A stretch of 39,858 nucleotides of DNA from Candidatus Adlerbacteria bacterium RIFOXYC1_FULL_48_26 (GTDB lineage: Bacteria; Patescibacteriota; Minisyncoccia; Phycocordibacterales; SBAW01). The first letter of the stretch is position 1. Each line of letters opens with the position of its first letter. Made by a program: the position numbers and the translations under genes. The notes under the pieces were generated by a model. That model saw nothing but the letters and a program-made list of their open reading frames with translations, did not search any database and had not been told where the DNA came from. The stretch is taken from positions 1-39,858 of the forward strand of contig MEXB01000002.1 in NCBI GenBank assembly GCA_001773575.1, given 5' to 3'. Of the stretch, positions 13,201 through 19,786 are shown one piece after another.

Positions 13201-13237
13201 AAAGAAAAAAACCGCCTTTCCAAAGAAGGGCGGTTTT
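13201..13237. terminator. Bidirectional terminator (stronger T run on minus strand)
   Basis: ACCGCCTTTC CAAA GAAGGGCGGT stem; A-rich 13201-13210 gives TTTTTTTCTTT on the minus strand, TTTT on plus. Confidence 0.65.
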
Positions 13238-13417
13238 GAATATACGGAACAGAGCAGTACAGAGTGCAGTAGAGTGGAAACTCCTGGGGCGCGAACACGA
13301 GATAGCCATGCCAGACATCCTACGAAAGATGTCGACGACTTCTCAGTTCAAGCAACCCCAGGAGTCCATCGGGACGACACCCCCGTCCCGATTCCGATAC
13401 AAACACTAAGAACAATC
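13211..13417 (-). ncRNA. Candidate structured ncRNA (element C), orientation probably minus
   Basis: Closing helix 13280-13289/13356-13365 (ACTCCTGGGG/CCCCAGGAGT), apical hairpin GACATC/GATGTC, second hairpin 13368-13376/13384-13392, minus-strand TTGATT-16-TAATAT promoter (13424..13451), terminator at 13211-13234. Confidence 0.45.
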
Positions 13418-13453: not shown

Positions 13454-13517
13454 GGTATACAAAGGACCGTCCTTGGTAGGGCAAGAGGGTATACAAAGGA
13501 CCGTCCTTGGTAGGGCA
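13454..13517. repeat. Two tandem direct repeats (34-bp period), each with a 21-bp dyad
   Basis: GGTATACAAAGGACCGTCCTTGGTAGGGCA at 13454-13483 and 13488-13517; dyad TACAAAGGAC-C-GTCCTTGGTA. Confidence 0.8.
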
Positions 13518-13807: not shown

Positions 13808-14066
13808 TCAGTAGGGGAGGGAGTGGGTCACAAAGTACAGACCCAAACCAACCCCACCCAAGCCCAAACCGCACAATACAGCTTTAGGGTAGAAAAAGGG
13901 GACTATGAAAGTCACCTCAGGGTTTTAAGAGAAATATGCAGATTTCTAGTACTCATAGGCTTAAGGAAGTCCAGGAGAGGAGCGTATTGCCTTTTTGTCG
14001 AGTCCACTTGGAGGATGTTCTGGACCCCTGTTCTTGCAGCCTATAGAAGTTATAATGCAGACACAA

Positions 14067-15233
14067 ATGTCTGTACCTGATATCTTCATCACAAAGAGCC
14101 AAATTTATAAAAAATTCGTAGAACTTGAGGAGGACCCTGCAGGAATAACTTTTATTTTTGGAGCAGGGGCTTCCGCTGGGTACACTTCAGATACTGCAAA
14201 CCATCTTACGCCTCCCACTGTTGAACATATTTTGGATAGGGAAAAAAATACCGCTGTTGCACGTTTAAAAGAGAAAGGGGAACATGATGGAGTTTTTGAC
14301 GAAAAGGATCATATAGATGACTGGCTAACATCAAGACAAATGGATTTGGAATCTTATCTTGGCTCTCTTTTTAAAAAGAGAGCTGAGAACGAACCTTTCG
14401 TATTAAATTTTCTCGAATACCTCAATGATTTATGTGCCTTAGTCTCTAAAAATTTTGACACAAGTCAAAAAAATAATTACAAAAGACTTGCTCGTACAAT
14501 GTATACCCTTAGGGGTAATTTACCTTGGCACTGCCTTTCATTTAATTACGACACGTTGTTAGAGAAGTCTATACTTTCTTGTAAAAAAGACGACGATCGA
14601 AATTTTAATTCTTTCCCCGACTACCAACTAAAAAACCCTAGCGTAATTAAGATACATGGCAGTAGAAATTTTACGTTTTCCTATGTCGAAAAAACTAAAA
14701 CTCCAAAAAAGACACGTAAAGAGATCTTCAAACTTATGATGGATGGTTCAGTTGATGAGTCTTCCGAGCAGAGCTTTTACCGCTATTCTTCGGAAGAAGA
14801 TTTTTCTGGATACGTTGGCCTATCTCGTTCTACTGAATGGGTCAAATATTCTGACGACGAAGAGTCGGTCTATTCGGATATTTATCATTATCCCTTAACG
14901 ATGGTGCCGATTCATAATACGACTAAATTTGAATGTCCATATTTTAAAGAACAGCTTGAAGAGGCAAAGAAAAGAATTTCTGAATCAAAACTAGTTGTTG
15001 TTATTGGATACAATCTTGGAGATGACGTATTTCGTGAACACATCAAGGGCCTAGACACAACATCCAAGGAACTTATATTAGTTGGTACAAATTCCCCTAA
15101 AGGAATAATTAATCAAAACATTACGCACCAATCTTACAAGTGGGCTTCTGAAATTTGGGAGGGAAAGAATATCAAAATCTTTGACGGAAATGGTTTTGGT
15201 GAGTTTGTTAACGCCATAGCCATAGCATCATAA
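14067..15233 (+). CDS. SIR2-domain protein (SIR2_2-like), putative NAD-utilising defence protein
   Basis: ITFIFGAGASAG, CLSFNYDTLLEKS, KIHGSRNF and SKLVVVIGYNLGDDVFREHI. TATAAT at 14051-14056 overlaps the upstream ATG 14055, so ATG 14067 is preferred. Confidence 0.8.
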   Translation: MSVPDIFITKSQIYKKFVELEEDPAGITFIFGAGASAGYTSDTANHLTPPTVEHILDREKNTAVARLKEKGEHDGVFDEKDHIDDWLTSRQMDLESYLGSLFKKRAENEPFVLNFLEYLNDLCALVSKNFDTSQKNNYKRLARTMYTLRGNLPWHCLSFNYDTLLEKSILSCKKDDDRNFNSFPDYQLKNPSVIKIHGSRNFTFSYVEKTKTPKKTRKEIFKLMMDGSVDESSEQSFYRYSSEEDFSGYVGLSRSTEWVKYSDDEESVYSDIYHYPLTMVPIHNTTKFECPYFKEQLEEAKKRISESKLVVVIGYNLGDDVFREHIKGLDTTSKELILVGTNSPKGIINQNITHQSYKWASEIWEGKNIKIFDGNGFGEFVNAIAIAS

Positions 15234-15887: not shown

Positions 15888-16097
15888 ACAGCTAATTCTA
15901 CCTCAAAAGAGGGGAGTCACTCCCCCAAGTTTTGTAGATTTTTTTGTAAATATTTTTATAGTTTTTTATCAAACCAAATGGTGGGGATGTCAGAAATAAT
16001 TCCCAGACGCGCGCAGGGAAGAGAATGGGGCACAAAGTATAAGTCCGGATTTAACTGATCTGGGCCCAAGGGGATACCGGGTTTGAATATGGTTATA

Positions 16098-16622: not shown

Positions 16623-16645
16623 AACAGGGGAGTCACTTCCCTGTT
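16623..16645 (+). terminator. Putative terminator hairpin
   Basis: AACAGGG...CCCTGTT stem downstream of 16610; no long T run. Confidence 0.45.
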
Positions 16646-16649
16646 GGAT

Positions 16650-16678
16650 TTGACACATATTTATATATGTGGTAACCT
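16650..16678 (+). promoter_or_regulatory. Promoter of ncRNA element B
   Basis: TTGACA - 17 nt - TAACCT; predicted +1 = 16685, first base of the closing helix. Confidence 0.65.
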
Positions 16679-16684
16679 AGATTA

Positions 16685-16830
16685 GCTCCAGGGGAACTTA
16701 TGCCCCACATAAGCTAAAGCTTGGGTGTTTCCCCACAGATTCTTTAACGACGACACCGGGATCTGTTCATCTTAGCCTGCCCCTGGAGCAACACATCCGG
16801 CCGCCACTCGAAAGATTGGCGGCCTTTTTT
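16685..16830 (+). ncRNA. Candidate structured ncRNA (element B), three-way junction plus terminator
   Basis: Closing helix GCTCCAGGGG/CCCCTGGAGC (16685-16694/16780-16789), hairpin CTTATG/CATAAG (16697-16702/16708-16713), CAGAT/ATCTG, then terminator GGCCGCCACTCGAAAGATTGGCGGCCTTTTTT. Confidence 0.6.
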
Positions 16831-17695: not shown

Positions 17696-17727
17696 AGGCC
17701 GCTCGAAAGAGTGGCCTTTTTCTTTTA
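17696..17727 (+). terminator. Rho-independent terminator
   Basis: AAGGCCGCTCGAAAGAGTGGCCTTTTTCTTTT. Confidence 0.7.
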
Positions 17728-18012
17728 AAAGTTTCCGAGCGAGTAGAGCAATGCTATAAGGATATACGGCACCACTATGGCAACACCTTGCGGGATGCTT
17801 AAACTCTTTTTACTCAAAGAAAGCCACACGGTTCCTGCAGAAATACCGCACAGGAGAATCAATATAACGTTTATCAAAGCGAGTGCTGCATATGCGCCAC
17901 TTGAAGTGGCATACGAGAACGCAAGAAGCGTACTTGGAGCCAACAAATAAATTATATAAACCGCGGCAATCGTGTGGAGAGCGGCGAGAAAGGTTAAAAG
18001 CATTTTAGACAT
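17725..18012 (-). CDS. Small polytopic membrane protein
   Basis: 95-aa hydrophobic ORF; TATAAT exactly 6 nt upstream of ATG (minus strand). Confidence 0.7.
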   Translation of the reverse strand: MSKMLLTFLAALHTIAAVYIIYLLAPSTLLAFSYATSSGAYAALALINVILILLCGISAGTVWLSLSKKSLSIPQGVAIVVPYILIALLYSLGNF

Positions 18013-18049: not shown

Positions 18050-18077
18050 TTGACGCCCTACCCTTTTGTGCTATTTT
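18050..18077 (+). promoter_or_regulatory. Promoter of ncRNA element A
   Basis: TTGACG - 16 nt - TATTTT; predicted +1 = 18084, first base of the closing helix. Confidence 0.6.
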
Positions 18078-18083
18078 TGTTGC

Positions 18084-18263
18084 GGGTGCTGGAGGGTTCG
18101 CAGTGGTGCCCATCACTGCCGTATGTGTAGCCGGCTCTCTGCCTCGTCCTTGTCTCTCCCCGAGCAGACCTGGTAGATGAGAGTCTCACATATGCCTCCA
18201 GCACCTTATTCTTCAGAAACGTTCTTTGTTCACCAACCGCCAGTCTCTGGCGGTTTTCCTTTT
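18084..18263 (+). ncRNA. Candidate structured ncRNA (element A), three-way junction plus terminator
   Basis: Closing helix GGTGCTGGAGG/CCTCCAGCACC (18085-18095/18195-18205); hairpin GCAGTG/CACTGC (18100-18105/18114-18119); helix CGTATGTG/CACATATG (18120-18127/18187-18194); GGCTCTC/GAGAGTC (18133-18139/18179-18185); TGCCTCG/CGAGCA (18140-18146/18161-18166); terminator ACCGCCAG TCT CTGGCGGTTTTCCTTTT. Confidence 0.7.
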
Positions 18264-18322
18264 GTGTGGTATCGTATGTGTGCGCCAAGAGTATCCCTAG
18301 AGATACAACCGGAGGGCAGGCA

Positions 18323-18490
18323 ATGTCCATTTCAGAAGGTCGCATCAACTCAAAAGGTTCCAACGGCCACTACTTCCTGCACGGGTCCAGTGCACGGGAG
18401 TCCTGGCTCCACAGCAGCGAGTCCTGGCGGTTCAAGATCGGCGTCGTCGTCGGTATCATCCTGATGGTGGCGATTGTCCGTCAGTTTTAG
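18323..18490 (+). CDS. Small single-TM hypothetical protein
   Basis: 55-aa ORF MSISEGRINSKGSNGHYFLHGSS...FKIGVVVGIILMVAIVRQF; SD GGAGGG; terminator follows. Confidence 0.65.
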   Translation: MSISEGRINSKGSNGHYFLHGSSARESWLHSSESWRFKIGVVVGIILMVAIVRQF

Positions 18491-18550: not shown

Positions 18551-18991
18551 TTACTTACCAGCAGAGGCTAGAAGTTTTGCACTCTGAGTGTTACCCCAGC
18601 ATGGCTTGGACGAATTCCAAGGGGTAGTTCCTTCTCTTTCATATAGGTAGCGAGCGTACTCCATATTCCCTTCAAGAGAATATATGTCTATACCGAGCTT
18701 CTCTGAGGCACCCAAGTGGTAGTCCTCATTGACCTGCATAACGCCGACATCGCGGTCGTTTAGCTTGCCACGGTACACTTCGCCGTTTTTATTGAACTGG
18801 CGGAAGTGAGATTCACACTTCGCAATATCCACCATCACGGGGATATCGTAGAAGTATTCAGCGACCTGGTCGCGGATGGTTTGCGCCTGCGGTGCAATAC
18901 CCAACGTCGGTACGACTGAAGGGGTAGTTGAGGCAGGTGTTGCGCCTAGTGCTGACGAAAGCGCCAGAGCGAGGCCAAGAGCGAAAGGCAT
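18551..18991 (-). CDS. Secreted lysozyme/lytic transglycosylase-like protein
   Basis: Signal peptide; AKCESHFRQFNKNGEVYRGKLNDRDVGVMQVNEDYH resembles an SLT catalytic segment. Confidence 0.75.
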   Translation of the reverse strand: MPFALGLALALSSALGATPASTTPSVVPTLGIAPQAQTIRDQVAEYFYDIPVMVDIAKCESHFRQFNKNGEVYRGKLNDRDVGVMQVNEDYHLGASEKLGIDIYSLEGNMEYARYLYEREGTTPWNSSKPCWGNTQSAKLLASAGK

Positions 18992-19183: not shown

Positions 19184-19786
19184 TTAAAGCCAGGGAATTT
19201 CGTACTGGTCAAACTCTGGGAGCAGTTTTTTGTCGTATAGGAGGCGGGAGATGACTTCTGCATGGCTTTTTGCCCCCGTTAAAGCGTTATGAGGCTTTGG
19301 TTCCTCTGGAATTCCGCAGTAATTAAGCACTGCATCGAGGTTGAGCTTGGAGTGGTGCTTCTCTGGGTCCGTTGGGGGAGTCAGTCCCCTCTTTATCATG
19401 TGCATATAGCACAGGGTGTGGGTGTCTATAGTGCGGTGGGCAAACGGCCATTCTGTATGGCCAGCACGCTCTGCTCCTGCTGCCAGAAAATCCCTGTCAT
19501 AGGAGACGTTCTGCCCTGCCAAGGTTCGCTCCTCAAGCGTCTGTGCCCAATCCTTAAATTTGTGGACCAAATCGGCCTCAGACTGCTTCGCAGGGTCAGT
19601 TGCCTGTTCCCTACTAAAGCCGTTTACCTCCAAAGCCTCCTCTTCAATATGGGCACCGTCCCAGGCACGGCACTCCTCATAAAACTGGTTCTCTGGGTGG
19701 GCCAAGTCCAAGGCCCCCACGCTCAAAATCGAGTTTTTCTTGGCATCCAGGCCGCTTCCCTCCACGTCTACGATAAGCATTGCCAT
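19184..19786 (-). CDS. DnaQ-like 3'-5' exonuclease
   Basis: LIVDVEGSGLD (ExoI), NVSYDRDFLAAGAERAG (ExoII), HNALTGAKSHAEV (ExoIII). Confidence 0.85.
   Translation of the reverse strand: MAMLIVDVEGSGLDAKKNSILSVGALDLAHPENQFYEECRAWDGAHIEEEALEVNGFSREQATDPAKQSEADLVHKFKDWAQTLEERTLAGQNVSYDRDFLAAGAERAGHTEWPFAHRTIDTHTLCYMHMIKRGLTPPTDPEKHHSKLNLDAVLNYCGIPEEPKPHNALTGAKSHAEVISRLLYDKKLLPEFDQYEIPWL

What the first reader, a model, noticed from the sequence alone, without database searches (positions are those of the whole stretch)
18050..18263. Candidate novel structured ncRNA (element A) whose closing helix starts exactly at the predicted +1
Hand folding gives a coherent three-way junction: an 11-12 bp closing helix (18084/85-18095 with 18195-18205/06), a side hairpin GCAGTG/CACTGC, and a distal arm CGTATGTG/CACATATG that abuts the closing helix and continues through GGCTCTC/GAGAGTC and TGCCTCG/CGAGCA. 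TTGACG-16-TATTTT places +1 at 18084, the first closing-helix base, and a terminator hairpin with a T tract follows at ~18235-18263. I could not match it to RNase P, tmRNA, SRP RNA or 6S by their conserved motifs. That is a judgement from memory, not a search.
Basis: partly seen in the sequence, partly recalled or inferred. Interest (0 to 1): 0.8.

Follow-up and report, generated by a model that had tools for sequence, protein, structure and literature searches.

The report
Fast-evolving structured small RNA gene
Next to a few small accessory genes, this tiny uncultured bacterium carries a small RNA gene that is very probably real: its closest sequenced relative keeps the same folded shape in the same place although much of the sequence has changed. 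What the RNA does is unknown, and expression has not been shown.

Summary
The hairpin anatomy is real and folds far better than shuffled sequence (z about -5.4). Rfam has no match. A has no detectable DNA or covariance-model homolog, but synteny finds its ortholog in the nearest relative, G019. There the same promoter and neighbours enclose an RNA (A') with the same three-way junction. Aligned from the promoter, the closing helix has 4 of 10 pairs changed on both sides and none broken; the distal arm adds 5 double changes and one broken pair. No reading frame is shared. A second window element, B (16685-16789), repeats the plan: TTGACA promoter, helix starting 7 nt after the -10 box, 5' side hairpin with a CCC loop, distal arm, terminator. 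I conclude that A is a standalone structured sRNA gene of a small, very fast-evolving family seen in only two species. Transcription is not shown. The likeliest action, trans-antisense pairing through exposed C-rich loops, is inference. In passing: a stronger, 6S-like, strongly covarying RNA elsewhere in this genome, without an Rfam family.

The parts
18050..18077 (+). Promoter of A: TTGACG, 16 nt, TATTTT, with TG one base before the -10
   Evidence: Consensus scan; TTGACG, 16-nt spacer and TGnTA kept in ortholog A' (L063 2314-2341) inside a block otherwise about 69% identical
18084..18206 (+). Element A, structured RNA (three-way junction)
   Evidence: Fold z -5.38; ortholog A' with the same junction at L063 2349-2457; compensatory changes
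18084..18095 (+). Closing helix, 5' arm GGGTGCTGGAGG
   Evidence: Pairs with 18195-18206; 10 pairs comparable in A', 4 double changes, 0 single changes, 0 broken
18195..18206 (+). Closing helix, 3' arm CCTCCAGCACCT
   Evidence: As above
18100..18119 (+). Side hairpin GCAGTGGT-GCCC-ATCACTGC; counterpart loops CCCCAAA in A' and CCCCA in B
18120..18194 (+). Distal arm; base pairs 18120-18127 with 18187-18194; apical C-rich loop TCCCC at 18157-18161
   Evidence: basal helix has 5 double changes and 1 broken pair against A'
18235..18263 (+). Intrinsic terminator of A: AACCGCCAGTCTCTGGCGGTT then TTCCTTTT
   Evidence: A' lacks this separate hairpin and has AACTTCTTTTTT right after the closing helix instead
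18323..18490 (+). Neighbouring 55-aa ORF with one predicted membrane helix and a strong GGAGGGC ribosome site; kept next to A' in G019 (51% identity)
   Evidence: 82% identical leader block 18257-18322
17725..18012 (-). Divergent neighbour, small membrane protein; kept next to A' in G019 (56% identity)
16650..16678 (+). Promoter of B: TTGACA, 17 nt, TAACCT
   Evidence: Sequence
16685..16789 (+). Element B, probable paralog of A: closing helix GCTCCAGGGG/CCCCTGGAGC, side hairpin CTTATG-CCCCA-CATAAG, distal arm GCTAA/TTAGC
   Evidence: Fold z -3.33, 1 of 500 shuffles as good; descriptor scan; about 69% of aligned bases shared with A', alignment score 46 against shuffled mean 20, sd 7
16798..16829 (+). 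Terminator of B: GGCCGCCACTCGAAAGATTGGCGGCC then TTTTTT

Best explanation
Element A is a standalone small RNA gene. Transcription starts at the first base of a 12-pair closing helix and stops at a separate terminator, giving an RNA of about 175 nt whose first 123 nt form a three-way junction. Selection keeps the architecture (closing helix, 5' side hairpin, stacked distal arm, C-rich loops) while the paired sequence drifts quickly with compensatory changes. A, its ortholog A' and its paralog B form one small family. The likeliest mechanism is a trans-acting antisense sRNA that pairs through its exposed C-rich loops (GCCC and TCCCC in A; CCCCAAA and a long C/U-rich loop in A'; CCCCA and TTTCCCC in B) with G-rich ribosome-binding sites, such as the GGAGGGCA sites of the neighbouring small genes. 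Shown here: fold, covariation, synteny, absence from Rfam. Inferred: expression, start site, targets, antisense action. I put about 0.85 on a real structured sRNA gene and about 0.35 on the antisense mechanism.
For: Fold z -5.4. Ortholog in G019 between the same two neighbours, folding on its own into the same junction (z -4.98). Closing helix: 4 double-compensatory pairs of 10, 0 broken, on an alignment anchored at the promoter; sliding the partner by 1-3 columns drops pairing from 100% to 35-45%. Distal arm: 5 further double changes. RNAalifold on A and A': 10 of 23 predicted pairs changed on both sides. A model built from A alone, unfiltered, picks A' and B at their exact borders as its best other plus-strand matches in 6.6 kb, though not significantly (E 0.37 and 0.66). 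Unpaired CCC triplets in A, A' and B together: 10 against 4.6 in shuffles, 9 of 400 as high. UCCC or C-rich loops that pair with ribosome-binding sites are an established sRNA device in Gram-positive bacteria (PMC3861533). The loop UGCCC of A matches GGGCA in the ribosome-binding sites of ORFs 17293 and 18323.
Against: Only one ortholog and one paralog; nothing in 33 other genus members, so the covariation rests on two sequences. In the shuffle control for two rows 36 of 500 reach the same count, as must happen with so few sequences. No transcript data. The loop-to-target match is only 4-5 bases, and in A' it is shorter. GGAGGG sites before starts are not clearly enriched over permuted controls (28 against 17-25), and long ORFs in this genome show no Shine-Dalgarno enrichment at all, which limits the possible target set. 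Best-duplex energies with the neighbouring mRNAs are weakly informative: A 27 of 200 shuffles as good, B 7 of 200, A' 1 of 200.
Confidence: 0.5

Rival explanations
1. A is a cis-acting leader: promoter, sensor-like junction, attenuator terminator, then the 55-aa ORF at 18323. The structure would control read-through into the ORF.
For: The order promoter, structure, terminator, small membrane ORF holds at both A and B, with 117 nt from helix end to ATG in each, and the ORF is kept next to A'.
Against: ORF 16906 after B has its own good promoter (TTGACAGACTTCCCTTCCGTGGTAGTTT). The leader of ORF 18323 has an extended -10 (TGTGGTATCGT) kept in G019. A' has no separate attenuator hairpin. No clear antiterminator pairing is visible. 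Aptamers normally keep sequence in the core; here it drifts.
Confidence: 0.2
2. A is a protein-binding RNA: a scaffold or decoy, for example a 6S-like RNA or an RNA antitoxin, where shape rather than sequence matters.
For: Architecture is conserved while sequence drifts; ends are sealed by a long helix as in stable scaffold RNAs; small membrane ORFs lie nearby.
Against: No 6S-like central bubble; a much better 6S candidate exists elsewhere in the genome. No tandem repeats and no nuclease-type toxin beside it, as type III toxin-antitoxin systems have.
Confidence: 0.2
3. The inverted repeats are a DNA feature (mobile-element ends, a recombination site or an attC-like cassette site), not an RNA.
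For: The region is an accessory patch (GC 0.36-0.56 against 0.48), and such helices can be cruciforms.
Against: No other copy in the genome, no transposase or integrase among the flanking proteins scanned, no attC core motif seen by eye; promoter and terminator flank it; the distal arm covaries too.
Confidence: 0.07
4. Chance fold of non-functional intergenic DNA.
For: Promoter next to a long helix is not enriched genome-wide; A has no sequence-level homologs.
Against: z -5.4 and -5.0 in two species, and double changes without breaks in the closing helix.
Confidence: 0.05

Closest known systems
C-rich-loop antisense sRNAs (Staphylococcus Rsa family and RNAIII, UCCC motif; PMC3861533)
   Same: Stable hairpins, separate promoter and terminator, exposed C-rich loops able to pair with ribosome-binding sites
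   Different: No shown target; loops are GCCC, CCCCA or TCCCC rather than a fixed UCCC; long end-closing helix; host lineage with little Shine-Dalgarno use
6S RNA (RF00013)
   Same: Ends joined by a long helix that starts at the transcript start; independent gene
   Different: No large central bubble mimicking an open promoter; a three-way junction instead; no Rfam match; a better 6S candidate exists in the genome
Riboswitch-type transcription attenuators
   Same: Promoter, junction, terminator, small ORF in that order
   Different: No conserved core sequence, no separate terminator hairpin in the ortholog, neighbouring genes appear to have their own promoters
Type III toxin-antitoxin RNA (ToxI-like)
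   Same: Small RNA gene with terminator directly before a small ORF
   Different: No tandem repeat units and no ToxN-like nuclease

Membership tests
Any Rfam family | Score at or above the curated gathering score | tested here: not met
   Only a tRNA in the window passes. Permissive scans: for A only SNORD65 at E 4.5 on the other strand, for A' only an lncRNA fragment at E 8, for B only weak matches, the best of which overlap its terminator
6S RNA | Rfam 6S model match | tested here: not met
   No match in the window or in 41 relatives at E up to 1; controls ring
6S RNA | Large central bubble between closing and terminal stems | tested here: not met
   A and A' fold as a three-way junction with the distal arm abutting the closing helix
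SRP RNA | SRP model match, and Ffh present to bind it | tested here: not met
   RF00169 0 of 37 genomes; SRP54 GTPase domain absent from G000, only sub-threshold or P-loop-sized hits in relatives; SRP loss reported for Parcubacteria (PMC4508563)
tmRNA | tmRNA model match | tested here: not met
   The tmRNA of this genome is at C12:53486-53860
RNase P RNA | Conserved GAGGAAAGTCC core motif | tested here: not met
   Motif absent from A; a typical occurrence at C9:47942 on the minus strand
Trans-acting antisense sRNA with C-rich loops | Independent transcript with own promoter and terminator | tested here: inconclusive
   Both predicted, promoter kept in G019; no expression data
Trans-acting antisense sRNA with C-rich loops | Accessible C-rich loops | tested here: met
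   Unpaired C runs in A, A' and B, above shuffles jointly, 9 of 400
Trans-acting antisense sRNA with C-rich loops | Pairing with and regulation of target mRNAs | tested here: inconclusive
   4-5 base loop match to GGGCA sites only; full duplex energies weak; regulation not testable here
Attenuator or riboswitch leader | Conserved terminator hairpin between the structure and its ORF | tested here: not met
   Terminator hairpin present after A, absent after A'
Type III toxin-antitoxin RNA | Tandem repeats followed by a ToxN-like gene | tested here: not met
   No tandem repeat family covers A; ORF 18323 has no Pfam match
Retron msr-msd RNA | Adjacent reverse transcriptase gene | tested here: not met
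   None of 20 flanking proteins scanned is a reverse transcriptase

The most novel reading that the evidence does not exclude
Some Patescibacteria keep a family of sRNA genes whose architecture and C-rich loops are preserved while the paired sequence turns over faster than that of the flanking protein genes, as if under diversifying pressure (for example from phage, host cell or rapidly changing accessory genes).
Probability: 0.15. Interest if true: 0.6.

Novelty: new member of a known kind. Interest (0 to 1): 0.42.

Why it matters
My limited literature search found no paper on regulatory sRNAs in Patescibacteria, and sequence searches miss RNAs that drift this fast. The case shows that synteny with a close relative can recover such genes when BLAST, single-sequence covariance models and Rfam all fail. 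It gives a defined family of three for probing and expression tests.

Tried and rejected
DNA similarity in 60 relatives and in phages: only chance-length matches. A covariance model from A alone over the 35 genomes of the genus: only A itself. Loop-motif pattern AGGNGAAN{2,7}TGCCCCA over 147 genomes: only B and A' have the architecture; the other matches inspected lack it. Promoter-plus-helix scan of two whole genomes: no enrichment over reversed or complemented controls. Descriptor scan: A, A' and B are the only hits with promoters; the other hits, in genomes and controls, look like chance. A 3-sequence MAFFT alignment of A, A' and B failed, so no model of the family could be built with the tools. 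Full-length duplex energies with neighbouring mRNAs gave no clear target. Genome-wide Shine-Dalgarno enrichment as support for an anti-SD role: not found. Element C (13205-13410) was first taken as a third copy; it is a hairpin plus a rod, not the same junction. RNAalifold on A and A' uses a shifted register in the distal arm, so the distal-arm count is taken, where I chose the register from the two independent folds.

Full report
What was claimed.

The observation. It holds. The scan finds TTGACG-16-TATTTT at 18050-18077 and a 9-pair terminator stem at 18235-18255 with a T-rich tail. The best fold has the 12-pair closing helix, the side hairpin and the 8-pair distal arm, with z -5.35 for 18080-18265 and -5.38 for the element alone, 0 of 500 shuffles as good. 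Among 30,665 equal-length windows of the genome it ranks about 18th after correction for dinucleotides; its exact ends were chosen, so this is somewhat generous. A long helix just after a good promoter occurs no more often in this genome than in reversed or complemented sequence, so the +1 coincidence alone proves little.

Not a known RNA. Rfam shows nothing above threshold, and permissive searches give only noise. The window is a whole 39,858-base contig of a 630 kb genome. tmRNA and an RNase P candidate lie elsewhere. SRP RNA and the SRP GTPases are not found, as already reported for Parcubacteria (PMC4508563). Rfam 6S does not ring in 41 relatives.

Finding the ortholog. Sequence searches for A fail. 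Synteny succeeds: the gene at 18551-18991 is 86% identical in G019, and G019 also keeps the small membrane gene (56%), the 55-aa ORF (51%) and ORF 17293 (62%), in the same order. Between the membrane gene and the 55-aa ORF lies A' (L063 2349-2457), with TTGACG, a 16-nt spacer and an extended -10, and a helix GTCCTGAGGTGAA/TTCACCTCAGGAC starting 7 nt after the -10. It folds by itself into the same junction (z -4.98).

Covariation. An alignment anchored at the promoter and at the helix end puts GTGCTGGAGG against GTCCTGAGGT. All 10 comparable pairs form in both species; 4 differ on both sides, none on one side only, none is broken; slid registers pair only 35-45% of cells. In the distal arm, with the register taken from the two folds, CGTATGTG/CACATATG against CGAGACTA/TAGTCTTC gives 5 double changes and one broken pair. 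RNAalifold also finds 10 of 23 pairs changed on both sides, although its distal register is shifted. With two sequences the shuffle control is weak (36 of 500); the case rests on the absence of single-sided changes in the closing helix, the identical architecture and the shared position. Flanking DNA is about 69% identical upstream and 82% downstream, while A and A' align only slightly better than shuffled sequence, so the RNA drifts faster than its surroundings. No frame is shared.

A second member. B at 16685-16789 has TTGACA-17-TAACCT, a 10-pair closing helix 7 nt after the -10, a 5' side hairpin with loop CCCCA, a short distal arm and a terminator. It is as similar to A' as A is. An unfiltered model of A ranks A' and B next among plus-strand matches, at their exact borders, though not significantly. 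A descriptor scan finds no other promoter-bearing member in the two genomes, and a loop-motif scan of 147 genomes adds none.

How it may work. Shown: structure, covariation, synteny, no known family. Inferred: A is transcribed alone and acts in trans. All three RNAs expose C runs, jointly more than shuffles do (9 of 400 as high). Accessible C-rich loops that pair with ribosome-binding sites are an established sRNA device (PMC3861533). The neighbouring small ORFs have strong GGAGGGC sites, unusual here because long ORFs show no Shine-Dalgarno enrichment. The match is only 4-5 bases, so this remains a proposal. A cis-leader is less likely because ORF 16906 has its own promoter and A' lacks a separate terminator hairpin. 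A protein-binding scaffold cannot be excluded.

Verdict. A real but lineage-restricted structured sRNA gene, new as a family, ordinary in kind, with an unproven mechanism.

Noticed in passing
G000 contig C4:44142-44289 (+), locus L154 1501-1648: A conserved RNA gene with homologs in at least seven genus members: TTGACA-17-TAGGAT promoter, 16-pair closing stem with invariant CTCTAAGCAA/TTGCTTAGAG, an open bubble with a small hairpin on its 3' side, a terminal arm and a terminator. 21 of 49 pairs change on both sides, 0 of 500 shuffles as high. No Rfam match at gathering. Its shape resembles 6S RNA, which Rfam does not find in this lineage. A stronger lead than element A.
   Followed up: partly
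G000 and 36 relatives: SRP RNA and SRP54-type GTPases not found; SRP loss in Parcubacteria is already published (PMC4508563).
   Followed up: yes
G000 whole genome: No Shine-Dalgarno enrichment upstream of 549 long ORFs; A/T-rich, -10-like words instead, which suggests many leaderless mRNAs; small accessory ORFs such as 17293 and 18323 do have strong SD sites.
   Followed up: partly
15911-15929, 16627-16645, 19375-19393: Repeated palindrome GGGGAGTCACTYCCC near genes and promoters; similar GGGGATTGACGACTTCCCT sequences overlap promoters in G019 (L063 1250 and 1436). Possible operator or small repeat.
   Followed up: no
13205-13410 (-): Another strongly folded unit (z -6.5): a hairpin then a long rod GGACTCCTGGGG/CCCCAGGAG, followed by a terminator. 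G034 has a hairpin-plus-rod of similar plan upstream of its ORF 17293 homolog.
   Followed up: partly
G000 contig C12:10361 (+): Promoter-like sequence, 13-pair closing helix GGTCGGACTCAGG/CCTGAGTCCGGCC, three-way junction with the small hairpin on the 3' side, and an immediate terminator: a further candidate sRNA.
   Followed up: no
13454-13517: Exact 30-nt direct repeat GGTATACAAAGGACCGTCCTTGGTAGGGCA, two copies 34 nt apart.
   Followed up: no
13995-15233 (+): AT-rich gene with a SIR2-like domain (SIR2_2), possibly a defence gene, in the same accessory patch.
   Followed up: no
G019 contig C9:20658 (+): Promoter plus 13-pair helix CTGTGGAACATGA/TCATGTTCCACAG with a competing downstream terminator pairing to an inner segment: attenuator-like.
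   Followed up: no
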